Translations under genes and position numbers: made by a program
The notes under the pieces: model-generated
The model's database searches: none
What the model was told of the DNA's origin: nothing
What the model saw: only the letters and a program-made list of their open reading frames with translations
Assembly (NCBI GenBank): GCA_029891345.1
Contig: CM057009.1
Coordinates: 301,855,466-301,919,465, forward strand
DNA: 64,000 nt
From: Dryococelus australis
Taxonomy: Eukaryota; Arthropoda; Insecta; Phasmatodea; Phasmatidae
Direction of reading: 5' to 3'
In this document: one piece after another, positions 3,166 to 64,000 of the stretch
How the letters are laid out: every line of letters starts with the position of its first letter
Position numbering within the stretch: position 1 is the stretch's first letter

Positions 3166-3404
3166 GATGGGGTTTCGGGGAGGGGGGAGGTTTGGCAGTA
3201 AGGCGACTTTAAATATTATTCATTGGTTTCCCGAATGTTTTATATAGCTCCGTGAGAGTCAGGCTAACAATAGGTGGTGTGTGCAAATGAGGTTAGATTT
3301 GGCAGCTGGTGTGGTGCTCCCCTATGTGGAGAGAAATAGTGTATTTTACTGTACTGAAAAACATCTATGAGGTAGGAAAATTGTAGCTCTTGTGTACTTG
3401 AACC

Positions 3405-15207: not shown

Positions 15208-15307
15208 NNNNNNNNNNNNNNNNNNNNNNNNNNNNNNNNNNNNNNNNNNNNNNNNNNNNNNNNNNNNNNNNNNNNNNNNNNNNNNNNNNNNNNNNNNNNN
15301 NNNNNNN
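15208..15307. other. Assembly gap of exactly 100 N
   Basis: One hundred N bases is a conventional placeholder for a join of unknown size. Sequence on either side need not be adjacent in the genome. Open frames running across it are artefacts. Confidence 0.98.
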
Positions 15308-30017: not shown

Positions 30018-30172
30018 ATCATGACTCCATTTTACAATCTGGAAATACAATATTTTACAATATGGAAATACAATATTTTACAATATGGAAATACAATATT
30101 TTACAATCTGGAAATACAATATTTTACAATATGGAAATACATTATTTTTACAATCCGGAAATACCATATTTT
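30018..30172 (+). repeat. 23-bp minisatellite, about six copies
   Basis: The unit TTTTACAATATGGAAATACA plus ATA repeats with GGAAATAC anchors at 30,041, 30,064, 30,087, 30,110, 30,133 and 30,157. Variation is mostly ATAT/ATCT/ATCC before GGAA. It starts where the minus-strand YqaJ reading frame breaks off. Confidence 0.9.
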
Positions 30173-30174
30173 CT

Positions 30175-30875
30175 GCGAGTAACATGTAATTGCCCTTGCA
30201 CTTGTAGGTGAAAACCATGATTTTTTTTTCATGCTAAGATGTTTCCTGACTTGTCAGTATTCCACGCCGTGACTTTCTTTTTTGTATTGCCTCTTTGGGT
30301 GTCGTATGTGAGGCGGACGATGGGCACTTAATTTCTATAATTCTCTCGTCTCCTACAAGCCCGGCTGGGGTGGCACCGAAGTAAGGAATCTCCGGATCAA
30401 TAAAAAGTCCACAGTCTAAAATGGTTAACTTTAGTTCTTGCTCCATCGCTTCCTTTGCAAGTTTTTCGTTATCAATTCCGTATTTCATTGCTTTGGTATC
30501 GATTCTGCTGTATAATATACTCTTTACTGTAGATTCACAACTCGTGTATGGGTTCATGTTACACATTCGTCCGAAATATGATGCTGTAAGTATTTTCTGT
30601 CTTCTCTCTTTCCACTCCCCACTTTCTCTTTGCATTACGGTTGCCCTTTCGACTCTCTCTTTCTCACTTTCTGTCATTTGCAAGGAGTCAATAAATTCTC
30701 TGCATTCTCTATTGAAAATCTCTGGATCCTTATCCGGTTTTTCTGCATTGGTGCCATATAAGTTATCTGAAAGCGCCCGGCGGAGTAAAGTCTTACCACA
30801 CTTCTTCACTTTTGTTGCCTTTCTTTTGGCCTTACTTGCTACAACTTCAGTTCTGCGTCTGTATTCCATACTCTT
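30175..30875 (-). pseudogene. YqaJ-type exonuclease domain, broken
   Basis: The minus-strand frame 30,234-30,869 shows YGTNAEKPDKDPEIF, then VMQRESGEWKERRQKILTAS, YFGRMC, TSCESTVKSILY, KYGIDNE, FGATPAGLVGDERIIEIKCP. This is the order of the YqaJ/lambda-exonuclease family, a DNA end-processing nuclease. The E-I-K part of the active site is kept, but the Asp usual in an S-P-D-G-L block is Ala here (TPAGL). A frameshift near 30,290 and a stop near 30,230 precede a further match, VQGQLHVTRRKYGI, which runs into the minisatellite. In insects this domain often follows a Mutator-like domain, as here. Confidence 0.8.
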
Positions 30876-37522: not shown

Positions 37523-39557
37523 AAAAAACTGTTTGCAAGTATCTGAATTTTTTTTGGCTCCGTCAGGTTTACCGGAAACTTCAACAACAGACATGTGCCT
37601 GTAACAAGAGTGGAACGAATAATAATATAACTAATTCTCGCACAAGTTTGTATTTTTACACAATTTGTATGCATACATTTCTAAAAATAGTTATGTTATC
37701 GTAAAGACTAAGGTTTCAACGTTCAGAACTACTACACAATTTTATACCAATATATGTAAATTTTTACACTGCAAAGTATTAAATTATTCACATATATCTG
37801 GTGAAACTATAAAGTTCAAAAACTAAGTGCACTCGAAACATGAAATTTGGGCAATGAAACTTATGCCATTTGATAACTGCAAACTTCAATAACAGTTTGA
37901 TTATATCTGAATTTTTTCTTACACCGTCAGTTTATTTTTACACTTTATCAAAGGAATATGCTTCCTATAACTGAGTGGAACAAATAATAAAATCATCAAT
38001 TCTCGCCTAAGTTTTCAGTTTTATACACATTTTGAATGCTTACATTTCTATAACTAGCATTATTCTTGTAAGGAAAAAAAGGTGTCCACTTTCAAAGATA
38101 CTACACAAATTTAGAACAAATTTTGTAATTTTAAATATGCAGAACATCAAATTATATACCTGTTACTAGAGATCGAAACATGCATAGTAGGGCAATGAAA
38201 CTCATGCTGTTTAATAGCTGTGTAATTGTAAAATAGTTTTCATTTATCAGAATTACTTGTGACACCAACAGTTTTGTTAGAACACTTAAAAAACAGGTGT
38301 GTGAGTTCTCTAATATGAGTGGAATGATGAACAAAATCATTAAATACGACAGAAGATTGTCGTTTTTTTATATACTTATGTAAGTGTGCATTTCTATAAT
38401 AAGTAATATTTTCGTAGGGAACAATGTTTCCACTTTCACATTCACTCTGCACATTTAGGATAAATTTTGTAATTTCAAACTGAAATTTATCAAATAATAC
38501 ACATATTTCTAGTGAAACAAAAAAATTCAAACACGAACTGAGCTAGAATAAGAGATAAGTGGGCAATGAAACTTATGCTATTTGATAGTTGCGATCTTGA
38601 AAAACTGTTTGCAAGTATCTGAAATTTTTTGGCTCCGTCAGTTTTATCGCAAACATAAACAACATTCATGTTCCTGTCACAAGAGTAGAATGAAGACACT
38701 ACACAGATTTAGAATACAATATCTAATTTAAAAAATTTAAAGCATTAAATTATACAACAATTTGTAGGAAAACTTTAATTTTTATAGAATAATGAGATCG
38801 AAACAGGGATAGTTGGGCAATGAAACTTATGCTGTTTGATAGAAGTGTTAGTTTGATATCTTAAATAACATTTTGCAAGTATCTGAAATTTTTTTGGTTC
38901 TGTCAGTTTTTTCGCATACATAAACAACAGAAATGTTACTATAAGAAGAGTGGAACGAAGAATTATATCACTAATTCATGCACAAGTATTTTTTTTACAA
39001 GCTTCGTATGGGTTTATTTCTTAAAAGAGTTCATTTATGTTAAGAATAAGACATCCACTTTCAAAACAACTATACAAATATATAGCAATGTATAAATATA
39101 TTTTTTAAACTACAAAGTGTCAAATTATACACATCTATCTGGTGAAACCATAAAGTTCAAGATATTGTGTGCTCGAAGAATGAAATTTGGCAAATGAATC
39201 TTATCCCATTTGATAACTGCTATCTTCAATAACAGTTTGATTATATAAGAATTTTTTCTTACACCATCAGTTTATTCGTACACTTTATCAACGGAATATG
39301 CTTAATATAAATAAGTGGAACAAATAATATTATCATTAATTCTCGCCTAAATTTGCAGTTTTATACACATTTTGAATGCTTACATTTCTATAACTAGTAT
39401 TATTCTTTTTAAAAAAAAAAAGGTGTCCACTTTCAAATATACTACACAAATTTATAATAAATGATGTAATTTTAAATCTGTAGAACATTAAATTATATCC
39501 CTGTTACTAGAAAAACTTAAAGTTCAAACACGAACTGAGATCGAAACATGGATAGTA
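37523..39557 (+). repeat. Left-edge satellite units, one internally deleted
   Basis: The array opens with a diverged partial monomer (about 37,523), then an E-type (about 37,848), A (38,190), B (38,561) and directly D (38,815). Part of B and nearly all of C are missing, so the A-to-A spacing is 1,368 instead of about 1,847. The junction is near 38,695, where AAGAGTAGAATGA meets AGACACTACACAG. Confidence 0.85.
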
Positions 39558-39929
39558 GGGCAATGAAACTTATGATGTTTAATAGCTGTGTAAGTGGAAA
39601 ATAGTTTCCATTTATTAGAATTTCTTGTGACACCAACAGTTTTGTTAGAACACTTAAAAAACAGGTGTGTGTGTTCTCTAATATGAGTGGAATGATGAAC
39701 AAAATCATTAAATCCGACAGAAGTTTGTAGTTTTTTTATATACTTATGTAAGTGTGCTTTTCTATATTAAGTAATATTCTCGTAGGGAACGATTTTTCCA
39801 CTTTCACATACACTCCACACATTTAGAATAAATTATGTAATTTTAAAACTAAAATATATAAAATCATACACATATTTCTAGTGAAACAAAAAAGTTCAAA
39901 CACGTACTGAGCAAGAAAAAGAGATAGGT
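39558..39929 (+). repeat. Satellite monomer A, first complete unit
   Basis: 372 bp. Diagnostic text TGTTTAATAGCTGTGTAAGT after the anchor, and GTTTTGTTAGAACACTTAAA. The minus strand of every A monomer gives a spurious frame of about 60-75 codons. Confidence 0.9.
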
Positions 39930-40293
39930 GGGCAATGAAACTTATGCTATTTGATAGTTGCCAACTTCAAAAACTGTTTGCAAGTATCTGAAATTTTTTG
40001 GTTAAATCAGTTTTAACGCAAACATAAACATCATACCTGTTCCTGTAACAAGAGTTGAACGCAGAAATATATCACTAATTCTCGAACTGGTTTGTAATAT
40101 TTTACACACTTTATATGAATACAGTTCTTAAAATAGTTATGTTATCATAAACGTTAAGGTCTTCAATTTCAATAGCAAAACAAAAATATTTACAATGCTT
40201 GGAATTTTTTAACTGCAAAGTATCAAATTATACACCTATAACTGGTGAAATTATTAAGTTCAATCAAATTATTGAGTTCGAAGACGGAAATAT
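39930..40293 (+). repeat. Satellite monomer B, first complete unit
   Basis: 364 bp. Diagnostic text GCTATTTGATAGTTGCCA, then AACTGTTTGCAAGTATCTGA and AACAAGAGTTGAACGCAGAA. Confidence 0.9.
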
Positions 40294-40662
40294 GGGCAAT
40301 TAACATATTGGCGTTTGATAAATGTAAACTTCAACAACAGTTTGATTATATCAGATTTTTTTCTACCATATTCATTTCATTCCGACTCTTAATGAACGGA
40401 ATATGCATCTTGAAACATGAGTGGAACAAAGAATAAAGTTATTAGTTCTCGCCGAAGTTTGCCATTTTTATTCAAAATCTGAATACTTACATTTCTAAAA
40501 CAAGTAATATTCTTGTAAGGAAAAAGGTTTTCCACTTTCACAGACACTACACAGATTAAGAATATAGTATGAAATTTTAAAAATTTAAAGCATCTAATTA
40601 TACACCAATTTCTAGAAAATTTTAATTTTTATAGAAGAAATGAGATCTAAACAGGGATAGTT
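40294..40662 (+). repeat. Satellite monomer C, first complete unit
   Basis: 369 bp. Diagnostic text CTTCAACAACAGTTTGATTA and TTCATTCCGACTCTTAATGA. It is the monomer lost from the left-edge unit. Confidence 0.9.
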
Positions 40663-41036
40663 GTTCAATGAAACTTGTGCTGTTTGATAGAAGCGTTAGT
40701 TTGCTAACTTAAATAACAGTTTGAAAGTAACTGAAATTTTTTTGGTTCAATCAGTTTTTTCGCAACCATAAACAACAGACCTGTTACTATTAGAAGAGTG
40801 GAACGAAGAATTATATCACTAATTCATGCACAAGTATTTTTTTTACAGGCATCGAATGGGTTTATTTCTTAAAATAGTTAATTTATGGTAATAATAACGT
40901 ATCCACTTTAAAAACAACTATTCATATTTATAGCAATGTATAAATATATTTTTTAAACTACAAAGTGTCAAATTATACACATCTATCTGGCGAAACCATA
41001 AAGTTCAGGAAATTGTGTGCTCGAAGAATGAAATTT
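40663..41036 (+). repeat. Satellite monomer D, first complete unit
   Basis: 374 bp. Diagnostic text TTTGATAGAAGCGTTAGTTT and AGAGTGGAACGAAGAATTAT. Confidence 0.9.
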
Positions 41037-41404
41037 GGCAAATGAAGCTTATCCCATATGATAACTGCAATCTTCAAGAACAGTTTGATTATATAAGAAT
41101 TTTTTCTTATACCATCAGTTTATTCTTACACTTTATCAACGGAATATGCTTAATATAAATAAGTGGAACAAATAATATTATCATTAATTCTCGCCTAAAT
41201 TTGCAGTTTTATACACATTTTGAATGCTTACATTTCTATAACTAGTATTATTCTTGTGAGGAAAAAAAGGTGTCCACTTTCAAAGATACTACACAAATTT
41301 ATAATAAATGATGTAATTTTAAATCTGCATAACATTAGATTATATCCCTGTTACTAGATAAACTTAAAGTTCAAACACGAACTGAGATCGAAACATAGAT
41401 AGTA
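41037..41404 (+). repeat. Satellite monomer E, first complete unit
   Basis: 368 bp. Diagnostic text GCTTATCCCAT(T/A)TGATAAC and CTTCAATAACAGTTTGATTA in most copies. Confidence 0.9.
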
Positions 41405-44400
41405 GGGCAATGAAACTTATGCTGTTTAATAGCTGTGTAAGTGTAAAATAGTTTCCATTTATTAGAATTTCTTGTGACACCAACAGTTTTGTTAGAACAC
41501 TTAAAAAACAGGTGTGTGCGTTCTCTAATATGAGTGGAATGATGAACAAAATCATTAAATCCGAGAGAATTTTGTAGTTTTTTTAAATACTTATGTAAGT
41601 GTGCTTTTCTATAATAAGTAATATTCTCGTAGGGAACGATGTTTCCACTTTCACATACACTCCACACATTTAGAATAAATTATGTAATTTTAAAACTAAA
41701 ATATATCAAATCATACACATATTTATAGTGAAACAAAAAAGTTCAAACACATTCTGAGCAAGAAAAAGAGGTAGGTGGGCAATGAAACTTATGGTATTTG
41801 ATAGTTGCCATATTCAAAACTGTTTGCAAGTATCTGAAATTTTTTGGTTCCATCAGTTTTATCGCAAACATAAATATCATACCTGTTACTGTAACAAGAG
41901 TTGAACGCAGAAATATATCACTAATTCTCGAACTTGTTTGTAATTTTTTACACACTTTATATGAATACAGTTCTTAAAATAGTTATGTTATCATAAACGT
42001 TAAGGTCTTCAATTTCAAAAGCAATACAAAAATATTTTACAATGCTTGGAATTTTTTAACTGCAAAGTATCAAATTATACACCTATAACTTGTGAAATTA
42101 TTAAGTTCAATCAAATTATTGAGTTCGAAGATAAAAATATGGGCTTATTAAACTTTTGGCTTTTGATAACTGTAAACTTCAACAACAGTTTGATTATATC
42201 AGATTTTCTACCATATTCATTTCATTCCGACTCTTAATGAACGGAATATGCATCTTGAAACATGAGTGAACAAAGAATAAAGTTATTAGTTCTCGCCGAA
42301 GTTTGTCATTTTTATTCAAATTCTTAATACTTACATTTCTAAAACAAGTAATATTCTTGTAAGGAAAAGGTTTTCCACTTTCACAGACACTACATATATT
42401 TAGAATATAGTATGTAATTTTAAAAATTTAAACCATCAATTTTTACACCAATTTCTAGAAAATTTTAATTTTTATAGAAGAAATGAAATCGAAACAGGGA
42501 TAGTTGTTCAATGAAACTTGTGCTGTTTGATAGAAGCGTTAGTTTGCTAACTTAAATAACAGTTTGCAAGTAACTCAATTTTTTTTGGTTCAATCAGTTT
42601 TTTTCACAACCATAAACAACAGACCTGTTCCAAAAGATGAGTGGAACGAAGAATTATATCACTAATTCATGCACAAGTTTTTTTTTTTTAATCTTCGTAT
42701 GGGTTTATTTCTTAAAATAGTTCATTTATGGTAAGAATAAGGTATCCACTTTCAAAACAACTATACAAATATATAGCAATGTATAAATATATTTTTTAAA
42801 CTACAAAGTGTCAAATTAAACCCATCTATCTGGTGAAACCATAAAGTTCAGGAAATTGTGTGCTCGAAGCATGAAATTTAGCAAATGAATCTTATCCCAT
42901 TTGATAACTGCTATCTTCAATAACAGTTTGATAATATCAGAATTTTTTTCTTACACCATCAGTTTATTCTTACACTTAATCATCGGAATATGCTTCCTTT
43001 AAATAAGTGGAACAAATAATATTATCATTAATTCTCGCCTAAATTTGCAGTTTTATACACATTTTGAATGCTTACATTACTATAACTAGTATTATTCTTG
43101 TAAGGAAAAAAAAAGGTGTCCACTTTCAAAGATACTACACAAATTTATAATAAATGATGTAATTTTAAATCTGCAGAACATTAAATTATATCCCTGTTAC
43201 TAGAAAAACTTAAAGTTCAAACACGAACTGAGATCGAAACATTTATAGTAGGGCAATGAAACTTATGATGTTTAATAGCTGTGTAAGTGGAAAATAGTTT
43301 CAATTTATTAGAATTTCTTGAGACACCAACAGTTTTGTTAGAACACTTAAAAAACAGGTGTGTGCGTTCTCTAATATGAGTGGAATGATGAACCAAATCA
43401 TTAAATCCGACAGAAGTGTGTAGTTTTTTTTATATACTTATGTAAGTGTGCTTTTCTATAATAAGTAATATTCTCGTAAGGAACGATGTTTCCACTTTCA
43501 CATACACTCCACACATTTAGAATAAATATTGTAATTTTAAAACTAAAATATATATCAAATCATACACATATTTCTAGTGAAACAAAAAAGTTCAAACACA
43601 TACTGAGCAAGAAAAAGAGATAGGTGGGCAATGAAACTTATGCTATTTGTAGTTGCCATCTTCAAAAACTGTTTGCATGTATCTGAAATTTTTTGGTTCC
43701 ATCAGTTTTATCGCAAACATAAACATCATATCTGTTTCTGTAAGAAGAGTTGAACGCAGAAATATATCACTAATTCTCGAACTGGTTTGTAATTTTTTAC
43801 ACACTTAATAAGCATACAGTTCTTAAAATAGTTATGTTATCATAAACGCTAATGTCTTCAATTTCAAAAGCAATACAAACATATTTTACAATGCTTGGAA
43901 TTTTTTAACTGCAAAGTATCAAATTATACACCTATAACTGGTGAAATTATTAAGTTCAATCAAATTATTGAGTTCGAAGATTAAAATATGACCATTTAAC
44001 CTTTTCACGTTCGATAACTGTAAACTTCAACAACAGTTTGATTATATCAGATTTTTTTCTACAATATTCATTTCATTCCGACTCTTAATGAACGGAATAT
44101 GCATCTTGAAACATGAGTGGAACAAATAATAAAGTTATTAGTTCTCGCCGAAGTTTGCCATATTTATTCAAATTCTTAATACTTACATTTCTAAAACAAG
44201 TAATATTCTTGTAAGGAAAAGGTTTTCCACTTTCACAGACACTACATATATTTAGAATATAGTATGTAATTTTAAAAATTTAAACCATCAATTTTTACAC
44301 CTATTTCTAGAAAATTTTAATTTTTATAGAAGAAATGAGATCGAAACAGGGATAGTTGTTCAATGAAACTTGTGCTGTTTGATAGAAGTGTAAGTTTGCT

Positions 44401-47400
44401 ATCTTAAATAACAGTTTGCAAGTAACTGAAATTTTTTTGGTTCCATCAGTTTTTTCACAACCTTAAACAACAGACCTGTTCCAAAAGATGAGTGGAACGA
44501 AGAATTATATCACTAATTCATGCACAAGTAATTTTTTAACAAGCTCCGTATGGGTTTATTTCTTAAAATAGTTCATTTATTGTAAGAATAAGGTATCCAC
44601 TTTCAAAACAACTATACAAATATATAGCATTGTATAAATATATTTTTTAAACTACAAAGTGTCAAATTATACACATCTATCTTGTGAAACCATAAAGTTC
44701 AAAAAATTGTGTGCTCGAAGCATGAAAATTGGGCAATAAAGCTTATCCCATTTGATAACTGCAATCTTCAATAACAGTTTGATTATATCAGAATTTTTTC
44801 TTACACCGTCAGTTTATTCTTACACTTTATCAACGGAATATGCTTGCTATAAATAAGTTGAACAAATAATATTATCATTAATTATCGCCTAAATTTGCAG
44901 TTTTATACACATTTTGAATGCTTACATTTCTATAACTAGTATTATTCTTGTAAAGAAAAAAAAGGTGTCCACTTTCAAAGATACTACACAAATTTAGAAT
45001 AAATGATGTAATTTTAAATCTGCAGAACATTAAATTATAACCCTGTTACTAGAAAAACTTAAAGTTAAAAACGACCTGTGATCGAAACATGGATAGTAGG
45101 GCAATGAAACTTATGCTGTTTAATAGATGTGTAAGTGGAAAAGAGTTTCCATTTATTAGAATTTCTTGTGACACCAACAGTTTTGTTAGAACACTTAAAA
45201 AACAGGTGTGTGTGTTCTCTAATATGAGTGGAATGATGAACATAATCATTAAATCCGACAGAAGTTTGTAGTATTTTTTATATACTTATGTAAGTGTGCT
45301 TTTCTATAATAAGTAATATTCTCGTTGGGAACGATGTTTCCACTTTCAAATACACTCCACACATTTAGAATAACTATTGTAATTTTAAAACTAAAATATA
45401 TAAAATCATACACATATTTCTAGTGAAACAAAAAAGTTAAAAACGTACTGAGCAAAAAAAAGAGATAGGTGGTTAATGAAACTTATTCTATTTGATAGTT
45501 GCCATCTTCAAAAACTGTTTGCAAGTATCTGAAATTTTTTGGTTCCATCAGTTTTATCGCAAACCTAAACATCATACCTGTTCCTTTAACAAGAGTTGAA
45601 CGCAGAAATATATCACTAGTTCTCGAACTGGTTTGTAATTTTTTACACACTTTATATGCATACAGTTCTTAAAATAGTTATGTTATCATAAAGGTTATGG
45701 TCTTCAATTTCAAAAGCAATACAAATATATTTAACAATGCTTGGAATTTTTTTACTGCAAAGTATCTAATTATACACCTATAACTGGTGAAATTATTAAG
45801 TTCAATCAAATTATTGAGTTCGAAGATGGAAATATGGGCAATTAAACTTTTGCCGTTTGATAACTGTAAACTTGCACAACAGTTTGATTATATCAGATTT
45901 TTTTCTACCATATTCATTTCATTCCGACTCTTAATGAACGGAATATGCATCTTGAAACATGATTGGAACAAAGAATAAAGTTATTAGTTCTCGCCGAAGT
46001 TTGCCATTTTTATTCAAATTCTGAATACTTACATTTCTAAAACAAGTAATATTCTTGTAAGGAAAAAGGTTTTCCACTTTCACAGACACTACACAGATTT
46101 AGAATATAGTATGTAATTTTAAAAATTTAAAGCATCTAATTATACACCATTTTCTAGAAAATTTTAATTTTTATAGAAGAAATGAGATCGAAACAGGGAT
46201 AGTTGTTCAATGAAAATTATGCTGTTTGATAGAAGCGTTAGTTTGCTACCTTAAATAACAGTTTGCGAGTATCTGAAATTTTTTTGGTTCAGTCAGTTTT
46301 TTCGCAACCATAAACAACAGACCCTTTACTATAAGAAGAGTGGAACGAAGAATTATATCACTAATTCATGAACAAGTTATTTTTTACAAGCTTCGTATGG
46401 GTTTATTTCTTAAAATAGTTCATTTATGTTAAGAATAAGATATCCACATTCAAAAAACTATACAAATATATAGCAATGTATAAATATATATTTTAAACTA
46501 CACAGTGTCAAATTATACACATCTATCTGGTGAAACCATAAAGTTCTAGAAATTGTGTGCTCGAAGCATGAAATTTGGCAAATGAAGCTTATCCCATTTG
46601 ATAACTGCAATCTTCAATAATAGTTTGATTATATAAGAATTTTTTCTAACACCATCAGTTTATTCTTACACTTAGCAAGGGAATATGCTTCCTATGAATA
46701 AGTGGAACAAATAATAACATCATTAATTCTCGCCTAAATTTGCAGTTTTATACACATTTTGAATGCTTACATTTCTATAACTAGCATTATTCTTGTAAGG
46801 AAGGAAAGGTGTCCACTTTCAAAGATACTACACAAATTTAGAATAAATGATGTAATTTTAAAACTGCAGAACATTAAATTATATCCCTGTTACTAGAAAA
46901 ACTTAAAGTTCAAACACGAACTGAGATCGAAACATGGATAGTAGGGCAATGAAACTTATGCTGTTAAAAAGCTGTGAAAGTGGAAAATAGTTTCCATTTA
47001 TTATAATTTCTTATGACACCAACAGTTTTGTTAGAACACTTAAAAAATAGGTGCGTGCGGTCTCTAATATGAGTGGAATGATGAACAAAATCATTATATT
47101 CGACAGAAGTGTGTAGTTTTTTTTATATACTTATGAAAGTGTGCTTTTCTATAATAAGTAATATTTTCGTAGGGAAAGATGTTTCCACTTTCACATATAC
47201 TCTACACACTTAGAATAAATTATGTAATTTTAAAACTAAGATATATCAAATCATACACATATTTCTAGTGAAACAAAAAAATTCAAAACACATACTGAGC
47301 AAAAAAAGGATAGGTGGCTAATGAAACTTATGTTATTTGATAGTTGCCATCTTCAAAAACTGTTTGCAAGTATCTGAAATTTTTTGGTTCCATCAGTTTT

Positions 47401-50400
47401 ATCGCAAACTAAACATCATACCTGTTTCCTTTAACAAGAGTTGAACGCAGAAATATATCACTAATTCTCGAATGGTTTGAATATTTTTAACACTTTATAT
47501 GCATACAGTTCTTAAAATAGTTATGTTATCATAAACGTTAGGTCTTCAATTTCAAAAGAATACAAATATTTAACAATGCTTGGAATTTTTTTACTGCAAA
47601 GTATCAAATTATACACCTATAACTGGTGAAATTATTAAGTACAATCAAATTATTGAGTTCGAAGATGGAAATATGGGCAATTTAACTTTTGCGTTTGATA
47701 ACTTTTAAACTTGACAACAGTTTGAATATATCAGATTTTTTCTTACCACATTCATTTCATTCCGACTCTTAATGAACGGAATATGCATCTTAAACATGAT
47801 GGAACAAAGAATAAAGTTATTAGTTCTCGCCGAAGTTTGCCATTTTTATTCAAATTCTGAATACTTACATTTCTAAAACAAGTAATATTCTTGTAAGGAA
47901 AAAGGTTTTCCACTTTCACAGACACTACAAGATTTAGAATATAGTATGTAATTTTAAAAATTTAAAGCATCTAATTATACACCATTTCATAAAAATTTTA
48001 ATTTTTATAGAAGAAATGAGATCGAAACAGGGATAGTGTTCAATGAAAATTATGCTGTTTGATAGAAGCGTTATTTTGCTACCTTAAATAACAGTTTGCA
48101 AGTATCTGAAATTTTTTGGTTCAGTCAGTTTTTTCGCAACCATAAACAACAGACCCTTTACTATCAAGAAGAGTGGAACGAAGAATTATATCACTAATTC
48201 ATGAACAAGTTATTTTTTTACAAGCTTCGTATGGGTTTATTTCTTAAAATAGTTCATTTATGTAAGAATAAGAGTATCCACTTATCAAAACAACTATACA
48301 AATATATAGCAATGTATAAATTTATTTTAAACTACAAAGTGTCAAATTATACACATCTATCTGGTGAAACCATAAAGTTCTAAGAAATTGTGTCTCGAAG
48401 CATGAAATTTGGCAAATGAAGCTTATCCCATTTGATAACTGCAATCTTCAATAATAGTTTGATTATATAAGAATTTTTTCTACACCATCAGTTTATTCTT
48501 AACCTTATCAAGGGAATATGCTTCCTATAAATAAGTGGAACAAATAATAACATCATTAATTCTCGCCTAAATTTGCAGTTTTATACACATTTTGAATGTT
48601 TACATTTCTATAATAGCATTATTCTTGTAAGGAAAAAGGTGTCCACTTTCAAAGATACTACACAAATTTAGAATAAATGATGTAATTTTAAATCTGCAGA
48701 ACATTAAATTATATCCCTGTTTCTAGAAAACTTAAAGTTCAAACACGAACTGAGATCGAAACATGGATAGTAGGGCAATGAAACTTATGCTGTTTAAAAG
48801 CTGTGAAGTGGAAAATAGTTTCCATTTATTAAATTTCTTATGACACCAACAGTTTTGTTAGAACACTTAAAAAAAGGTGGTGCGGTCTCTAATATGAGTG
48901 GAATGATGAACAAAATCATTAAATTCCCAGAAGTTTGTAGTTTTTTTTATATACTTATGAAAGTGTGCTTTTCTATAATAAGTAATATTTCGTAGGGAAA
49001 GATGTTTCAACTTTCACATAACTCATACGCACTTAGAATAAATTATGTAATTTTAAAATAAAATATATCAAATCATACACATATTTCTAGTGAAACAAAA
49101 AAATTCAAACACGTACTGAGCAAGAAAAAGGATAGGTGGGCAATGAAACTTATGTATTTGATAGTTGCCATCTTCAAAAACTGTTTGCAAGTATCTGAAA
49201 TTTTTTGGTTCCATCAGTTTTATCGCAAACATAAACATCATACCTGTTTCCAGTAACAAAGTTGAACGCAGAAATATATCACTAATTCTCGAAATGTTTG
49301 AATATTTTTAACACTTTATATGCATACAGTTCTTAAAATAGTTATGTTATCATAAACGTTAAGGTCTTCAATTTCAAAAGGAATACAAAAATATTTAACA
49401 ATGCTTGGAATTTTTTTCTGCAAAGTATCAAATTATACACCTATAACTGGTTGAAATTATTAAGTAAATCAAATTATTGAGTTCGAAGACGGAAATATGG
49501 GCAATTTAACCTTTTGGCGTTTATAACTGTAACTTCAACAACAGTTTGAATATATCAGATTTTTTCTACCAATTCATTTCATTCCGACTCTTAATGAACG
49601 GAATATGCATCTTGAAACATGAGTGGAACAAAGAATAAATTATTAGTTCTCGCCGAAATTGCCATTTTTATTCAAATTCTGAATACTTACATTTCTAAAA
49701 CAAGTAATATTCTTGTAAGGAAAAAGGTTTTCCACTTTCACAGAACTACACAGATTTAAATATAGTAGTAATTTTAAAAATTTAAAGCATCAAATTTATA
49801 CACCAATTAATATAAAATTTTAAATTTTTATAGAAGAAATGAGATCGAAACAGGGATAGTTTGTTCAATGAAACTTATGCTGTTTGATAGAAGCGTTGGG
49901 TTGCTACCTTAAAAACAGTTTGCAAGTATCTGAAATTTGTTTTGGTTCAGTCAGTTTTTTCGCAACCATAAACAACAGACCTGTTACTATCAGAAGAGTG
50001 GAACGAAGAATTATATCACTAATTCATGCACAAGTATTTTTTTGTACAATCTTCGTATGGGTTTATTACTTAAAATAGTTCATTTATTGTAAGAATAAGG
50101 TATCCACTTAAAAACAACTATACAAATATATAGCAATGTATAAATAAATTTTTTTAACTACAAAGTGTCAAATTATACACATCTATCTGGTGAAACCATA
50201 AAATCAAGTAATTGTATTCTCGAAGCATTAAATTTGGCAAATGAAGCTTATCCATTTGATAACTGCAATCTTCAATAATAGTTTGATTATATAAGAATTT
50301 TTTCTTACACCATCAGTTTATTCTTAAACTTTATCAAGGGATATATGCTTCCTATAAATAAGTGGAACAAATAATAACATCATTAATTCTCGCCTAAATT

Positions 50401-53400: not shown

Positions 53401-56400
53401 TTCCACTTTCACAGATACTATACAGATTATAATATAGTACGTATTTTAAAAATTTAAAGCATCAAATTTTTCACCAATTAATATAAATTTAAAATTTTTA
53501 TAGAAAAATGAGATCGAAACGGGATAGTTGTTTAATGAAACTTATGCTGTTTGATAGAAGCGTTAGTTTGCTACCTTAAAAACAGTTTGCAAGTATCTGA
53601 AATTTGTTTTGTTCAGTCAGTTTTTTCGCAACCATAAACAACAGACCTGTTACTATCAGAAGAGTGGAACGAAGAATTATATCACTAAATTCATGCACAA
53701 GTATTTTTTTACAATCTTCGTATGGGTTATTACTTAAATAGTTCATTTATTGTAAGAATAGGTATCCACTTACAAAACAACTATACAAATATATAGCAAT
53801 GTATAATAATTTTTTTAACTACAAAGTGTCAAATTATTCACATCTATCTGGTGAAACCATAAAGATCAAGTAATTGTATTCTCGAAGCATTAATTTGGCA
53901 AATGAAGCTTATCCATTTGATAACTGCAATCTTCAATAATAGTTTGATTATATAAGAATTTTTTCTTACACCATCAGTTTATTCTTATACTTTATCAACG
54001 GAATATGCTTCCTATAAATGAGTGGAACAAATAATATCATCATTATTCTCGCCTAAATTTGGAGTTTTATACACATTTTGAATTGCTTTACATTTCTATA
54101 ACTAGTATTATCTTGTAAGAAAAAAAAGTTGTCCAGTTTCAAAGATATACACAAATTAGAATAAATCATGTAATTTAAATCTGCAGAACATTAAATTATA
54201 TCCCTGTTACAAAAAGACTTAAAGTTTCAAACATGAACTGAGATCGAAACATGGATAGTAGGGCAATGAAACTTATGCTGTTTAATAGCGTTAAGTGAAA
54301 ATAGTTTCCATTTATTAGAATTTCTTGTGACACCAACATTTTGTTAGAACACTTAAAAACAGTGTGTGCGTTCTCTAATATGATGGAATGATGAACAAAA
54401 TAATTAAATCCGACAGAAGTTTGTAGTTTTTTCTATATACTTATGAATGTGCTTTTCTATAATAAGTAATATTCTCGTAGGGAACGATGTTTAAACTTTC
54501 ACATAACTTACGCATTTAGAATAAATTATGTAATTTTAAATAAAATATATCAAATCATACACATATTTCTAGTGAAACAAAAAAGTTCAAACAGTACTGA
54601 GCAAGAAAAAGAGTAGGTGGAATGAATACTTATTGCTATTTGTAGTTCCACATCTTCAAAAACTGTTTGCAAGTATCTGAAATTTTTTGTTCCATCAGTT
54701 TTATCGCAAACATAAAATCTACCTGTTCAGTAACAAGAGTTGAAAGCAAAATTATACTAATTCTCGAAATGATTTGTAATTTTTTACCATTTATATGCAT
54801 ACAGTTCTAAAATAGTTAATGTTATCAAAACGTTAAGTCTTCATTTCAAAACAATCAAAATTTTAACAATGCTTGGAAATATTTTTTACTGCAAGTAACA
54901 AATTTAACCCGATAACTGTTGAAATTATTAAATTCAATCAAATTATTGATTCGAAGACGGAAATATGGGCAATTAACCTTTTGCCGTTTCATAACGAAAC
55001 TTCAACAACAGTTGATTATATCAGATTTTTTCTACCATATCATTTCATTCCGACTCTTAATGAACGGAATATGCATCTTGAAATATGAGTGGAACAAAGA
55101 ATAAATTTATTAGTTCTCGCCGAAATTAGCCATTTTTATTCAAATTCTGAATACTTACATTTCTAAAACAAGTAATATTCTTGTAAGGTAAAAGGTTTTC
55201 CACTTTCACAGATACTATACAGATTTATAATATAGTACGTAATTTTAAAAATTTAAAGCATCAAATTTTTCACCAATTAATATAAAATTTAAAATTTTTA
55301 TAGAAGAAATGAGATCGAAACAGGATAGTTGTTTAATGAAACTTATGCTGTTTGATAGAAGCGTTAGTTTGCTACCTTAAAGAACAGTTTGCAAGTATCT
55401 GAAATTTGTTTTGTTCAGTCAGTTTTTTTCGCAACCATAAACAACAGACCTGTTACTATCAGAAGAGTGAACGAAGAATTATATCACTAATTCATGCACA
55501 AGTATTTTTTGTACAATCTTCGTATGGGTTTATTACTTAAAATAGTTCATTATTGTAAGAATAAGGTATCCACTTACAAAACAACTATACAAAATATAGC
55601 AATGTATAAATAAATTTTTTTAACTACAAATGTTCAAATTATTCACATCTATCTGGTGAAACCATAAAGATCAAGTAATTGTATTCTCGAAGCATTAAAT
55701 TTGGCAAATGAGCTTATCCCATTTGATAACTGCAATCTTCAATAATAGTTTGATTATATAAGAATTTTTTCTTACACCATCAGTTTATTCTTATACTTTA
55801 TCAACGGAATATGCTTCCTATAAATGAGTGGAACAAATAATATCATCATTAATTCTCGCCTAAATTTGGAGTTTTATACACATTTTGAATGCTTACATTT
55901 CTATAACTAGTATTATTCTTGTAAGAAAAAAAAGTTGTCCAGTTTCAAAGATACTACACAAATTTAGAATAAATCATGTAATTTTAAATCTGCAGAACAT
56001 TAAATTATATCCCTGTTACAAAAAGACTTAAAGTTCAAACATGAACTGAGATCGAAACATGGATAGTAGGGCAATGAAACTTATGCTGTTTAATAGCTGT
56101 GTAAGTGGAAAATAGTTTCCATTTATTAGAATTTCTTGTGACACCAACAGTTTTGTTAGAACACTTAAAAAACAGGTGTGTGCGTTCTCTAATATGAGTG
56201 GAATTATGAACAAAATCATTAAATCCGACAGAAGTTTGTAGTTTTTTCTATATACTTATGAAAGTGTGCTTTTCTATAATAAGTAATATTCTCGTAGGGA
56301 ACGATGTTTAAACTTTCACATACACTCTACACATTTAGAATAAATTATGTAATTTTAAAACTAAAATATATCAAATCATACACATATTTCTAGTGAAACA

Positions 56401-59400
56401 AAAAAGTTCAAACATGTACTGAGCAAGAAAAAGAGATAGGTGGGCAATGAAACTTATGCTATTTGATAGTTGCCATCTTCAAAAACTGTTTGCAAGTATC
56501 TGAAATTTTTTGGTTCCATCAGTTTTATCGCAAACATAAACATCATACCTGTTCCTGTAACAAGAGTTGAACGCAGAAATATATCACTAATTCTCGAAAT
56601 GGTTTGAAATATTTTACAAACTTTATATGCATACAGTTCTTAAAATAGTTATGTTATCATAAACGTTTAGGTCTTCAAATTCAAAAGCAATACAAAAATA
56701 TTTAACAATGCTTGGAATTTTTTTACAGCAAAGTATCAAATTATACACCTATAACTGTTGAAATTATTATGTTCAATCAAATTATTGAGTTCTAAGACGT
56801 AAATACGGGCAATTAACCTTTTGCCGTTTGATAACTGTAAACTTCAACAACAGTTTGATTATATCTGATTTTTTTCTACCATATTCATTTCATTCCGACT
56901 CTTAATGAACGGAATATGCATCTTGAAACATGAGTGGAACAAAGAATAAAGTAATTAGTTCTCGCCGAAATTTGCCATTTTTATTCAAATTCTGAATACT
57001 TACATTTCTAAAACAAGTAATATTCTTGTAAGGAAAAAGGTTTTCCACTTTCACAGATACTACACAGATTTAGAATATAGAATGTAATTTTAAAAATTTA
57101 AAGCATCAAATTTTTCACCAATTAATATAAAATTTAAAATTTTTAGAGAAGAAATGAGATCGAAACAGGGATAGTTGTTTAATGAAACTTATGCTGTTTG
57201 ATAGAAGCGTTAGTTTGCTACCTTAAAGAACAGTTTGCAAGTATCTGAAATTTGTTTTGTTCAGTCAGTTTTTTCGCAACCATAAACAACAGACCTGTTA
57301 CTATCAGAAGAGTGGAACGAAGAATTATATCACTAATTCATGCACAAGTATTTTTTTTACAATCTTCGTATGGGTTTATTACTTAAAATAGTTCATTTAT
57401 TGTAAGAATAAGGTATCCACTTACAAAACAACTATACAAATATATAGCAATGTATAAATAAATTTTTTTAACTACAAAGTGTCAAATTATACACATCTAT
57501 CTGGTGAAACCATAAAGATCAAGTAATTGTATTCTCGAAGCATGAAATTTGCCAAATGAAGCTTATCCCATTTGATAACTGCAATCTTCAATAATAGTTT
57601 GATTATATAAGAATTTTTTCTTACACCATCAGTTTATTCTTAAACTTTATCAAGGGATATATGCTTCCTATAAATAAGTGGAGCAAATAATAACATCATT
57701 AATTCTCGCCTAAATTTGCAGTTTTATACACATTTTGAATGTTTACAATTCTATAAATAGTATTATTCTTGTAAGGAAAAAAAGGTGTCCACTTTCAAAG
57801 ATACTACACAAATTTAGAATAAATGATGTAATTTTAAATCTGCAGAACATTAAATTATATCCCTGTTTCTAGAAAATCTTAAAGTTCAGACACGATCTGA
57901 GATCGAAACATGGATAGTAGGGCAATGAAACTTATGCTGTTTAATAGCTGTGTAAGTGGAAAATAGTTTCCATTTATTAGAATTTCTTGTGACACCAACA
58001 GTTTTGTTAGAACACTTAAAAAACAGGTGTGTGCGTTCTCTAATATGAGTGGACTTATGAACAAAATCATTAAATCCGACAGAAGTTTGTAGGTTTTTTT
58101 ATACACTTATGTAAGTGTGCTTTTCTATAATAAGTAATATTCTCATAGGGAACGATGTTTCCACTTTCACATACACTCCACACATCTAGAATAAATTATG
58201 TAATTTTAAAACTAAAATATATCAAATCATACACATATTTCTAGTGAAACAAAAAAGTTCAAACACGTATTGAGCAAGAAAAAGAGATATGTGGGCAATG
58301 AAACTTATGCTATTTGATAGTTGCGATCTTCAAAAACTGTTTGCAAGTATCTGAAATGTTTTGGTTCCATCAGTTTTATAGCAAACATAAACATCATACC
58401 TGTTCCTGTAACAAGAGTTGAACGCAGAAATATATCACTAATTCTCGAAATGGTTTGTAATTTTTTACACACTTTATATGCATACAGTTCTTAAAATAGT
58501 TATGTTATCATAAACGTTAAGGTCTTCAATTTCAATAGCAATACACAAATATTTACAATGCTTGGAATTTTTTAACTGCAAAGTATCAAATTATATACCG
58601 ATAACTGTTGAAATTATTAAGTTCAATCAAATTATTGAGTTCGAAGACGTAAATATGGGCAATTAACCTTTTGCCGTTTGATAACTGTAAACTTCAACAA
58701 CAGTTTGATTATATCAGATTTTTTTCTACCATATTCATTTCATTCCGACTCTTAATGAACAGAATATCCATCTCGAAACATGAGTGGAACAAAGAATAAA
58801 GTTATTAGTTCTCGCCGAAATTTGCCATTTTTATTCAAATTCTGAATACATACATTTCTAAAACAAGTAATATTCTTGTAAGGAAAAAGGTTTTCCACTT
58901 TCACAGACACTACACAGATTTAGAATATAGTATGTAATTTTAAAAATTTAAGCATCTAATTATACACCAATTTCTAGAAAATTTTAATTTTTATAGAAGA
59001 AATGAGATCGAAACAGGGATAGTTGTTCAAAGAAACTTATGCTGTTTGATAGAAGCGTTAGTTTGCTATCTTAAAGAACAGTTTGCAAGTATATGAAATT
59101 TGTTTGGTTCAGTCAGTTTTTTCGCAACAATAAACAACAGACCTGTTACTATCAGAAGAGTGGAACGAAGAATTATATCACTAATTCATGCACAAGTATT
59201 TTTTTTACAGGCTTCGTATGGGTTTATTTCTTAACATAGTTCATTTATGGTAAGAAGAAGGTATCCACTATCAAAACAACTATACAAATATACAGCAATG
59301 TATAAATATATTTTTTAAACTACAAAGTGTCAAATTATACACATCTATCTGATGAACAATAAAGTTCAAGAAATTGTGTGCTCGAAGCATGAAATTTGGC

Positions 59401-62400
59401 AAATGAAGCTTATCCCATTTGACTACTGCAATCTGCAATAACAATTTGATTATATCAGAATTTTTTCTTTCAAAGTCAGTTTATTCTTACACTTTATTAA
59501 CAGAATATGCTTCCTATAAATAAGTCGAACAAATAATATCATCATTAATTCTCGCCTAAATTTGCAGTTTTATACACATTTTGAATGCTTACATATCTAT
59601 AACTAGTATTATTCTTGTAAGGAAAAAAAGGTGTCCACTTTCAAAGATACTACACAAATTTAGAATAAATGATGTAATTTTAAATCTGCAGAACATTAAA
59701 TTATATCCCTGTTACTAGAAAAACTTAAAGTTCAAATTCGAACTGAGATCGAAACATGGATAGTAGGGCAATGAAACATATGCTGTTTAATAGCTGTGTA
59801 AGTGGAAAAATGTTTCCATTTATTAGAATTTTTTGTGACACCAACAGTTTTGTTAGAACACTTAAAAAACAGGTGTGTGCGTTCTCTAATATGAGTGGAA
59901 TTATGAACAAAATCATTAAATCCGACAGAAGTTTGTAGGTTTTTTTATACACTTATGTAAGTGTGCTTTTCTATAATAAGTAATATTCTCATAGGGAACG
60001 ATGTTTCCACTTTCACATACACTCCACACATTTAGAATAAATTAAGTAATTTTAAATCCGAAATATATCAAATCATATACATATTTCTAGTAAAACAAAA
60101 TAGTTCAAACACGTACTGAGCAAGAAAAAGAGATAGGTGGGCAATGTAACTTATGCTATTTGATAGTTGCCATCTTCAAAAACTGTTTGCAAGTATCTGA
60201 AATTTTTTGGTTACATCAGTTTTATCGCAAACATAAACATCATACCTGTTCCTGTAACTAGAGTTGAACGCAGAAATATATCGATAATTCTCGAACTGGT
60301 TTGTAATTTTTTACACACTTTATATGCATTCTGTTCTTAAAATAGTTGTGTTAACATTAACGTTTAGGTCTTCCATTTCAAAAGCAATACAAAAATATTT
60401 AATAATACTTGGAATTTTTTAAATCCAAAGTTACAAATTATACACCTATAACTGGTGAAATTATTAAGTTCAATCAAATTATTGAGTTCGAAGACGAAAA
60501 TATGGGCAATTAACCTTTTGGCGTTTTATAACTGTAAACTTCAACAACAGTTTGAATATATCAAATTTTTTTCTACCATATTCATTTCTTTCCGACTCAT
60601 AATGAACGGAATATGCACATCTTGAAACATGAGTGGAACAAAGAATAAAGTTATTAGTTCTCGCCGAAGTTTGCCATTTTTATTCAAATTCTGAATACTT
60701 ACATTTCTAAAACAAGTAATATTCTATTAAGGAAAGAGGTTTTCCACTTTCACAGACACTACACAGATTTAGAATATAGTACGTAATTTTAAAAATTTCA
60801 AGCATCAAATTATACAACAATTTCTAGAAAATTTTAATTTTTATAGAAGAAATGAGATCGAAACAGGGATTGTTGTTCAATTAAACATATACTGTTTGAA
60901 AGAAGCGTTAGTTTGCTATCTTAAATAACAGTTTGCAAGTATCTGAAATTTTTTTGGTTCAATCAGTTTTTTCGCAACCATAAACAACAGATTTGTTACT
61001 ATAAAAGAGTGGAACGAAGAATTATATCACTAATTCATGAACAAGTATTTTTTTTACAATCTTCGTATGGGTTTATTTCTTAAAATAGTTCCTATATGTT
61101 AAGAATAAGGAATCCACTTTCAAAGCAACTATACAAATATATAGCAATGTATAAATATATTTTTTAAACTACAAAGTGTCTAATTATACAAATCTAACTG
61201 GTGAAACAATAAAGTTCAAAAAATTGTGTGCTCGAAGCATGAAATTTGGGCAATGAAGCTTATCCCATTTGATAACTGCAGTCTTCAATAACAGTTTGAT
61301 TATATCAGAATTTTTTCTTACACCGTCAGTTTATTCTTACACTTTATCAACGAATTATGCTTCCTATAAATAAGTGGAACAAATAATAACGTCATTAATT
61401 CTCGGCTAAATTTGCGGTTTTATACACATTTTGAATTCTTACATTTCTATAACTAGTATTATTCTTGTAAGGAAAAAAAGGTGTCCACTTTCAAAGATAC
61501 TACACAAATTTAGAATAAATGATGTAATTTTAAATCTGCAGAACATTAAATTATATCCCTGTTACTAGAAAAACTTAAAGTGCAAACACGAACTCAGATC
61601 GAATCATGGATAGTATTGCAATGAAACTTATGCTGTTTAATAGCTGTGTAATTGGAAAATAGTTTCCATTTATCAGAATTTCTTGTAACACCAACAGTTT
61701 TGTTAGAACACTTAAAAAACAGGTGTGTGCGTTCTCTAATATGAGTGGAATGATGAACAAAATCATTAACTCCGACAGAAGTTTGTAGTTATTTAAATAC
61801 TTATGTAAGTGTGCATTTCTATAATTAGTAATATTGTCGTAGGAAAGATGTTTCTACTTTCACATACACTCCACACATTTAGAATAAATTATGTAATTTT
61901 AAAACTGAATTGTATCAAATCATACACATATTTCTAGTGAAACAAAAAAGTTCCAACACGTACTGAGCTAGTAAAAGAGAAAGGGGGGCAATGAAACTTA
62001 TGCTATTTGATAGTTGCGATCTTCAAAAACTGTTTGCAAGTATCTGAAATTTTTTGGTTCCGTCAGTTTTATCGCAAACATAAACAAAATACCTGTTCCT
62101 GTAACAAGAGTTGAACGCACAAATATATCACTAATTCTCGGAAAGGTTTGTAATTTTTTACACACTTTATATGCATACAGTTCTTTAAATAGTTATGTTA
62201 TCATAAACGTTAAGGTCTTCAGTTTCAAAAGAAATACAAATATATTTAACATTGCTTGGAATTTTTAAACTGCAAAGAATCAAATTATACACTTAAAACT
62301 GGCGAAATTTTTAAGTTCAATCAAATTATTGAGCTCGAAGACGGAAATATGAGCAATTAACTTTTTGCCGTTTGATAATTGCAAACTTCAACAACAGTTT

Positions 62401-64000
62401 GATTATATCAAAATTTTTTCTACCATTGTCATTTCATTCCGACGCTTAATGAACGGAATATGCATCTTGAAACATGAGTGGAACAAATAATAAGGTTATT
62501 ATTTTTTGCCGAAATTCTCCGTTTTATATTAAAAAATTCTAAATACTTACATTTCTAAAACAAGTAATATTCTTGTAAGGAATAAGATTTTCCACTTTCA
62601 CAGACACTACAGAGATTTAGAATATTCTATCTAATTAAAAAAATTTAAAGCATCAAATTATACACCAATTTTTAGCAAATCTTTAATTTTTATAGAAGAA
62701 ATGAGATCGAAACAGGGATAGTTGGGCAATGAAACTTATTATGTTTGATAGAAGCGCTAGTTTGCTATCTTAAATAACAGTTTGCAAGTATCTTAAATTG
62801 TTTTGGTTCAGTCAGGTTTTTCGCAAACATAAACAACAGACATGTTAATATAAGATGTGTGGAACGAAGAATTATATCACTAATTCATGCACAAGTTTTT
62901 TTTACAAGTTGGTTATTGGTTTATTTCTTAAAATAGTTCATTTATGTTAAGAATTAGGTATCCACTTTCAAAAACACTATACAAATATATACCAATATAT
63001 AAATATATTTTATAAACTACAAAGTGTCAAATTATACAAATCTATCTGGTGAAACCATAAAGTTCAAAAAATTGTGTGCTCGAAGCATGAAATTTCTGCA
63101 ATCAATCTTATCCCATTTGATAACTGCAATCTTCAATAACAGTTTGATTATATCAGAAATTTTTCTTACACCGTCAGTTTATTCTTACACTTTATCAACG
63201 GAATATGCTTCCTATAAATGAGTGGAACACATAATAAAATCGTTAATTCTCCACTAAATTTGCTGTTTTATACACATTTTGATTGCTTACATTTCTATAA
63301 CTAGTATTATTCTTGTAAGAAAAAAAACCATATCCACTTCTAAAGATATTACACAAATTTAGAATAAATGATGTAATTTTAAATCTGCAGAACATTAAAT
63401 TATATCCCTGTTACTAGAAAAACTCAAGTTCAAACATGAACTGAGATCGAATCATGGATAGTAGGGCAATGAAACTTATGCTGTTTAATAGCTGTGTATT
63501 TGGAAAATAGTTTTCATTTATCAGAATTTCTTGTAACACCAACAGTTTTGTTAGAACACTTAAAAAACAGGTGTGTGCATTCTCTAATATGAGTGGAATG
63601 ATGAACAAAATTATTAAATCCGACAGAAGTTTGTAGTCTTTTTATATACTTATGTAAGTGTGCAATACTATAATAAGTAATATTCTCGTAGGGAATGATG
63701 TTTACACTTTCACATACACTCCACACATTTAGAATAAATTATGTAATTTTAAAAATGAAATATATCTAATCATACACATATTTCTAGTGAAACAAAAAAG
63801 GTCAAACACGTACTGAGCTAGAAAAAGATATAGGTGGGCAATGAAACTTATGCTATTTGATAGTTGCGATTTTCAAAAACTGTTTGCAAGTATCTGAAAT
63901 TTTTTGGTTCCATCAGTTTTGTCGCAAACATAAACAACATACCTGTTCCTGTAAAAAGAGTTGAACGCAGAAATATATCACTAATTCTCGCACTGGTTTG

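What the first reader, a model, noticed from the sequence alone, without database searches (positions are those of the whole stretch)
37523..64000. Pentameric higher-order repeat satellite, unit about 1,847 bp
Five diverged 364-374-bp monomers repeat in fixed order at least 14 times. Higher-order structure of this kind is well known at primate centromeres but described in few insects. The monomer anchors in the first complete unit (39,558; 39,930; 40,294; 40,663; 41,037; then 41,405) show it directly. A centromeric or pericentromeric role is inference.
Basis: partly seen in the sequence, partly recalled or inferred. Interest (0 to 1): 0.75.

Follow-up and report, generated by a model that had tools for sequence, protein, structure and literature searches.

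The report
Five-part repeat array, insect X chromosome
[quoted passage not shown] the order is real, the block is found at only one place in the assembly, and a centromere role is unproven and, as it stands, unlikely.

Summary
From window 37,524 a head-to-tail satellite of about 368-bp monomers runs past the window end to window-equivalent 69,392 (31.9 kb, 87 monomers). 79 consecutive core monomers follow a strict five-type cycle (0 of 79 have a nearest neighbour of another type); TRF with long periods gives one array, period 1,850 bp, 16.0 copies.

The genome is, by exact N50, Dryococelus australis; the scaffold is inferred to be its X, though the array sits in a 56-kb contig placed by scaffolding. 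Three pentamer markers (up to 3 mismatches) occur 15, 23 and 15 times in 3.4 Gb, all in this array. The wider monomer family is X-enriched: 70 of 86 near-exact hits of a family marker are on that scaffold (9.6% of the assembly). There the family has formed at least two other HORs from other monomers: a trimer (315.0 Mb) and a decamer of two pentamers (254.62 Mb, copies 99.7% identical). Seven short array samples showed no HOR signal.

Best reading: repeated local HOR birth by unequal exchange from an X-enriched monomer library; this array is ageing and probably non-centromeric. HORs are known in beetles, flies and Timema: a new member of a known kind.

The parts
37524..38805 (+). Left edge: four monomers; partial type-2/4-like (37,524), type 5 (37,840), type 1 (38,181), and a 254-bp fusion of a type-2 5' part with a type-3 3' part (38,552)
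   Evidence: profile hits, identity to types, fusion scored per type
38806..39548 (+). Start of the strictly ordered core: monomers of type 4 and type 5
39549..41395 (+). First complete intact pentamer (types 1-5: 39,549; 39,921; 40,285; 40,654; 41,028)
41396..63454 (+). Twelve further complete pentamers, uninterrupted
   Evidence: unit starts; TRF period 1,850
47307..49852 (+). Patch of the core with an excess of short deletions (6-10 per monomer) but ordinary substitution rates; probably long-read consensus error rather than age
   Evidence: per-monomer substitutions and indels; the assembly paper warns of indel errors
52073..55693 (+). Second deletion-rich patch (2-24 per monomer); it holds monomer 54,608, the source of all 7 of 585 same-type pairs below 0.79
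63455..64000 (+). Fourteenth pentamer, cut by the window end; the array continues to L009:5392 (window-equivalent 69,392), the ordered core to window-equivalent 67,890

Best explanation
This is a non-coding satellite array with a pentameric higher-order repeat, at one place on what I infer is the X chromosome of Dryococelus australis. It arose in place: a monomer pair (types 2-3) was duplicated to give types 4-5, a fifth monomer (type 1) joined them, and the five-monomer block was then multiplied to 15-16 copies and partly homogenised by unequal exchange between misaligned copies. The same process has acted independently at least twice more on that scaffold on the same X-enriched monomer family (a trimer and a decamer). 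The array is ageing: its copies differ by 2-13% and the right edge is decaying. It most likely has no centromere role and is intercalary X satellite DNA. Shown: the order, extent, single locus in the assembly, the scaffold bias of the family, the other HORs, the type relationships. Inferred: unequal exchange as the mechanism, C17 = X, the placement of this contig on it, absence of a centromere role.
For: Order and period. Each type monophyletic among 176 and then 216 monomers, with no other monomer inside any of the five clades. Types 2+4 and 3+5 pair (0.737 and 0.75 against 0.586-0.668 for the other eight pairs; the 2-3 dimer is closest to the 4-5 dimer, 0.791). Neighbouring pentamers are more alike than distant ones (Mantel r -0.33, 34 of 5,000 permutations as extreme), and a fused monomer with a deletion is what unequal exchange leaves. 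Single locus: 15 of 15, 23 of 23 and 15 of 15 marker hits lie in this array. X bias: of 86 family-marker hits with at most 1 mismatch, 70 are on C17, 3 on unplaced C221, 13 on autosomes. Other HORs: L049 lag-3 identity 0.878 against 0.765 shuffled, 0 of 2,000; L052 3,402-bp decamer, 3,389 of 3,399 aligned bases identical between the two copies compared, halves 86% alike.
Against: No read-level or population data: copy number may be collapsed or altered by assembly. The array's contig is only 56 kb (window 15,308 to window-equivalent 71,600, scaffold gaps at both ends), so its place on C17 rests on Omni-C scaffolding. The distance effect is modest and could also come from gene conversion or slippage. 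The dimer-duplication order rests on five types and on node supports of about 0.85; types 1, 3 and 5 do not form a clade without monomers of other arrays. The family marker was chosen from monomers of loci that were mostly on C17, so the X bias is partly built in, and tandem hits are not independent; the 14 listed hits with 2 mismatches are all autosomal, but that list is cut off in contig order before C17. Timema shows that centromere repeats can be chromosome-specific, so a single locus does not by itself exclude a centromere.
Confidence: 0.68

Rival explanations
1. The array is part of the X centromere or its flank: a surviving or under-assembled piece of a much larger HOR domain, with CenH3 on the youngest HOR somewhere in the missing sequence.
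For: HOR form with diverged, out-of-phase edges resembles primate alpha satellite. The contig holding the array is only 56 kb and ends 2.2 kb past it. A 16-kb unplaced contig, C221, is partly the same family. Over 1 Gb of genome is unassembled. Timema autosomal centromeres sit on chromosome-specific tandem repeats, some in higher-order form.
Against: Both ends of the array pass into other DNA within the same contig, 22 kb on the left and 2.2 kb on the right. Markers occur nowhere else among the 646 contigs searched. Copies are old (mean 92% alike) while a younger HOR of the family lies 47 Mb away. Family arrays are scattered over about 147 Mb of the scaffold. In Timema the X primary constriction is at one end; this array is placed 24.6 Mb from the nearer end.
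Confidence: 0.15
2. The dispersed X arrays are functional X-identity or X-heterochromatin elements, like the X-linked 1.688 (359-bp) satellite of Drosophila that helps mark the male X for dosage compensation; the HOR is one of many such sites.
For: Similar monomer size, strong bias to one scaffold inferred to be X, many short arrays along it. In D. australis the inferred sex chromosomes are C-band positive along their whole length (PMC10268593). Role of 1.688 repeats: PMC11228850 and PMC7072490, seen only as search listing with the start of the abstract.
Against: No expression, small-RNA or chromatin data were available. X bias also follows from local spread alone. No gene context was examined. 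No sequence relation to 1.688 was tested.
Confidence: 0.13
3. The higher-order order is an assembly artefact: one pentamer written out many times by the long-read assembler.
For: Assembly from noisy long reads; the authors note indel errors and suggest short-read polishing; deletion-rich patches in the array.
Against: No two of the 15 pentamers are the same: they differ by 2-13%, with substitutions of 1-9% against their own type consensus, while two copies of the decamer in the same assembly differ by 0.3%, so consensus error is far too small. Five types at about 65% identity in unbroken order over 79 monomers are not what read error gives.
Confidence: 0.02

Closest known systems
Alpha satellite HORs of primate centromeres
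   Same: Diverged monomers (here about 65% alike; 70-90% in alpha satellite, PMC5615363 passages) in fixed order, multiplied as a block; monomeric relatives elsewhere; diverged edges; locus-specific HOR types; hints of an older dimer inside the pentamer.
   Different: Monomer about 368 not 171 bp; copies only 87-98% alike here against above 95%; 32 kb, not megabases (the latter recalled); no CENP-B box excess; no centromere evidence.
HOR satellites of the Drosophila ananassae subgroup (PMC11917152, passages)
   Same: Insect HORs from complex monomers (99-411 bp).
   Different: There up to 2 Mb and pericentromeric; here 32 kb at one interstitial locus.
Timema stick-insect centromere repeats (PMC11691646, sections 8 and 10 read)
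   Same: Same insect order; chromosome-specific tandem repeats, some in higher-order form.
   Different: The Timema HORs combine two different families (one the telomere-like AACCT); here all units belong to one family. No sequence comparison with Timema was made.
HORs of Tribolium castaneum (passage in PMC7598501; the primary paper was not held)
   Same: Insect satellite HORs.
   Different: TCAST HORs there are described as heterogeneous and combined with extraneous elements; here regular and of one family.
1.688 (359-bp) satellite of Drosophila (listing and abstract starts only)
   Same: About 360-bp monomer, X-linked; short arrays along the X (the last recalled).
   Different: No homology tested; function in dosage compensation not testable here.
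Bag320 satellite of Bacillus stick insects (seen only in a reference list; otherwise recalled)
   Same: A phasmid satellite of a few hundred bp.

Membership tests
Higher-order repeat satellite (alpha-satellite-like organisation) | Diverged monomer types in fixed cyclic order | tested here: met
   0 of 79 phase violations; 0 of 2,000 shuffles
Higher-order repeat satellite (alpha-satellite-like organisation) | Same-position monomers much more alike than neighbours | tested here: met
   0.917 against 0.648. Tails overlap (0.733 and 0.782) only through one deletion-rich monomer at 54,608; without it the same-type minimum is 0.811
Higher-order repeat satellite (alpha-satellite-like organisation) | Near-identity (above 95%) of HOR copies, as in human arrays | tested here: not met
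   mean 0.919, range 0.866-0.980 for 15 units; met instead by the decamer L052 (0.997, two copies)
Alpha satellite proper | 171-bp monomer and CENP-B box | tested here: not met
   monomer about 368 bp, no half-monomer repeat, CENP-B box matches (motif recalled) not above shuffles
Centromeric satellite | CenH3 occupancy / location at primary constriction | not testable with these tools
   no ChIP or FISH data
Centromeric satellite | Large, homogeneous array or presence at many chromosomes | tested here: inconclusive
   32 kb and single locus in the assembly, so not met as assembled; but over 1 Gb is unassembled and the contig ends 2.2 kb past the array
X-enriched satellite (1.688-like) | Strong excess on the X | tested here: met
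   70 of 86 hits with at most 1 mismatch on C17 (counted by hand; marker taken mostly from C17 loci); C17 = X inferred from length rank and PMC10268593
X-enriched satellite (1.688-like) | Role in X recognition / dosage compensation; homology to 1.688 | not tested
   no expression data; no sequence comparison made

The most novel reading that the evidence does not exclude
The phasmid X carries its own satellite system: one X-enriched 368-bp monomer library that repeatedly gives birth to HOR arrays of different multiplicity (3, 5, 10) at different places, marking successive X centromeres or sites that hold CenH3 or heterochromatin along the X (Timema shows chromosome-long CenH3 on the male meiotic X). 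The window array would be a retired such site.
Probability: 0.1. Interest if true: 0.85.

Novelty: new member of a known kind. Interest (0 to 1): 0.5.

Why it matters
Three HOR arrays of one family on one scaffold, with different copy identities (99.7%, about 88% and about 92%) and different multiplicities, beside arrays without HOR signal, make the steps from monomer to HOR directly comparable within one insect chromosome. If the array is indeed not centromeric, it shows that regular multi-monomer HORs arise outside large centromere domains, so HOR form alone would be a poor marker of a centromere.

Tried and rejected
Half-monomer (184-bp) origin, dyad symmetry and CENP-B box: not above the shuffled controls. 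Rfam and tRNA scans of the window: nothing. Left and right flanks share only one 12-mer (E 0.53), so no sign of a duplicated insertion flank. The Tribolium madens paper gave no whole-word 'HOR' or 'higher-order repeat', although the listing counts one 'higher-order repeat...' by word start; not followed up. A first marker for the decamer array gave 0 hits because it was copied from a blended TRF consensus, not from literal sequence; a literal one gave 8, all in that array. The DNA searches did not return the query's own array (the tool skips very common words), so they were not used as a count of HORs; the literal-pattern searches were. So another strongly homogenised HOR of different sequence could have escaped these searches.

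The seven samples without HOR signal hold 6-10 monomers each and were tested at lags up to 6 at most, so longer HORs would be missed; the lowest shuffle count among them was 160 of 2,000 (L005, lag 1). L047 (5 monomers) was uninformative. L050 and L051 got lag means only, and L052 an identity matrix but no permutation test.

Dropped rows: 8 edge monomers of 87 left out of the core statistics; L002 left out of the alignments and trees because it overlaps L001; pieces under 250 bp or under 200 bp left out; of 164 family-marker hits only the 86 with at most 1 mismatch are fully listed by the tool and counted by chromosome.

Full report
What was checked. Autocorrelation of 37-64 kb is highest at 1,846-1,848 (0.375), followed by 3,697 and 5,544; single-monomer lags are weaker (0.329 at 372). 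A profile built from the five monomers of the first complete unit finds 74 consecutive + strand hits from 37,524 to 64,000. TRF run with periods up to 2,000 reports one array, 38,694-68,177, period 1,850, 16.0 copies, 92% matches; the tool's own TRF call, whose longest period is 500, lists only a 40-bp piece there.

Where it lies. The window is C17:301,855,466-301,919,465 of a 3,415,067,245-bp genome in 646 contigs. I identify it as Dryococelus australis: the paper gives 3.42 Gb (3,421,391,311 bp in 1,879 scaffolds, so the held copy lacks small scaffolds), 17 large scaffolds, N50 262,277,254 and L50 5 (PMC10268593, parts 1 and 2 of 4 read); here C4 is exactly 262,277,254 bp and is the fifth longest of the 17 large contigs (lengths). 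C17 is 326,569,885 bp, the fourth longest but placed after C16 (63 Mb); the paper identifies Scaffold_4 as X. That C17 is the X is therefore an inference, a strong one. A caveat: scaffold gaps of 100 N lie at window 15,208-15,307 and at window-equivalent 71,601-71,700, so the array sits in a 56-kb contig whose place on C17 rests on the authors' Omni-C scaffolding.

Extent. Fetching the next stretches shows that the array ends at L009:5392, window-equivalent 69,392. Window 1-37,523 holds no copy. Beyond the gap, 17 further 10-kb samples placed between 301.93 and 303.93 Mb, one just upstream of the window and one at 310 Mb hold none either. In all there are 87 monomers, 31.9 kb, 28% GC against 37% in the 37 kb upstream.

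Order. Leaving out four monomers at each edge, 79 monomers (38,806 to window-equivalent 67,890) follow a five-type cycle without exception: 0 of 79 have a nearest neighbour of another phase; same-type identity is 0.917 and different-type 0.648; 0 of 2,000 shuffles reach the lag-5 or lag-10 identity. Each type is a clade in trees of 176 and 216 monomers (support 0.71-1.0 and 0.78-1.0). Same-type and different-type tails overlap (0.733 and 0.782) only through the monomer at 54,608, which has 24 deleted bases: all 7 of 585 same-type pairs below 0.79 involve it, and without it the minimum is 0.811. Two patches (47.3-49.9 and 52.1-55.7 kb) are rich in short deletions but ordinary in substitutions, which I read as consensus error.

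History inside the unit. Types 2 and 4 (0.737) and types 3 and 5 (0.75) are closest; the other eight pairs are 0.586-0.668. The dimer 2-3 is closest to the dimer 4-5 (0.791; other dimer pairs 0.676-0.752). The simplest history is a dimer duplication plus one further monomer, then multiplication of the five; types 1, 3 and 5 do not form a clade of their own, since monomers of other arrays fall among them. Substitution distance from the type consensus rises from 1-5% in most of the array to 5-9% at the right end (61.6 kb onward). Nearby units are more alike than distant ones (r -0.33; 34 of 5,000 permutations as extreme). The 254-bp monomer at 38,552 is a type-2/type-3 fusion that keeps the phase. 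These are the marks expected of unequal exchange; the mechanism itself is inferred.

Only here. A type-1 marker gives 15 hits in the genome, a type-2 marker that also reaches type 4 gives 23, a type-4 marker 15, with up to 3 mismatches, every one in this array, with 0 hits for the reversed controls.

The family. A marker from the monomers of other arrays gives 164 hits with up to 2 mismatches against 2 for the reversed control; of the 86 with at most 1 mismatch, 70 are on C17, 3 on unplaced C221 and 13 on autosomes (counted by hand). C17 is 9.6% of the assembly. The marker came mostly from C17 loci and tandem hits are not independent, so the size of the bias is only a guide. Family arrays lie at several places between 167.9 and 315.0 Mb of C17. 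Ten sampled loci were tested by permutation: seven on C17 (L001, L003-L008; 6-10 monomers each, lags up to 6 at most) show no lag above chance; L047 is too short to tell; L048 (unplaced C221) shows a weak trimer (3 of 2,000); L049 (C17:314.99 Mb) a clear trimer (0.878 at lag 3, 0 of 2,000). L052 (C17:254.62 Mb) is a decamer of 3,402 bp whose two compared copies match at 3,389 of 3,399 aligned positions and whose halves are 86% alike; a marker of its pentamer half occurs 8 times, all there. None of their monomers falls inside the five type clades of the window array.

What it is. Best reading: local, repeated birth of HORs from an X-enriched monomer library, the window array being an old one. 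A centromere role is not supported: small, single, old, interstitial as placed. It is not excluded, because over 1 Gb is unassembled, because the contig ends 2.2 kb past the array, and because Timema autosomal centromeres use chromosome-specific repeats, some in higher-order form (PMC11691646, sections 8 and 10 read, other passages seen). A 1.688-like role in X identity is a rival that I could not test.

Known or new. HORs in insects are on record. No paper on a D. australis satellite or HOR appears among the papers listed by the searches (4 of 4 shown; 25 of 38; 15 of 15; 20 of 225; 10 of 3,787; 7 of 7; 10 of 78); the genome paper itself mentions satellite elements only in its repeat landscape (of the two parts read). 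The lists are partly capped and the library lacks most subscription journals, so this is weak evidence of novelty. I file it as a new member of a known kind.

Noticed in passing
L052 (C17:254,624,500-254,631,700): A decameric HOR (3,402 bp, two diverged pentamers with truncated ~225-bp monomers), two compared copies 99.7% identical: a cascading HOR, more homogeneous and probably younger than the window array.
   Followed up: partly
L049 (C17:314,991,700-314,997,000); related copies at C17:267.905 Mb and on unplaced C221: A trimeric HOR of the same family; the 267.905-Mb stretch matches one unit at 85%, C221 at up to 81%.
   Followed up: partly
window 15,208-15,307: A 100-N scaffold gap inside the window; with the one at L009:7601-7700 it bounds a 56-kb contig that holds the whole array.
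   Followed up: partly
L050 (C12:20,484,500-20,488,700): Two short autosomal arrays of the family joined in opposite orientation (minus then plus).
   Followed up: no
window 1410-1784 (+): Fragment of a DDE_Tnp_1_7 transposase (piggyBac-type, name recalled), Pfam E 9.1e-08.
   Followed up: no
window 30234-30869 (-): ORF with a YqaJ-like exonuclease domain (Pfam E 5.1e-14), next to a 23-bp tandem repeat at 30,029-30,172.
   Followed up: no
L017:5708-6768 and L026:1-464: Tandem repeats with a 76-bp period (14 copies, 95% matches, in L017; about 80% matches in L026), placed 86 kb and 2 Mb downstream of the window end; whether they are the same repeat was not tested.
   Followed up: no
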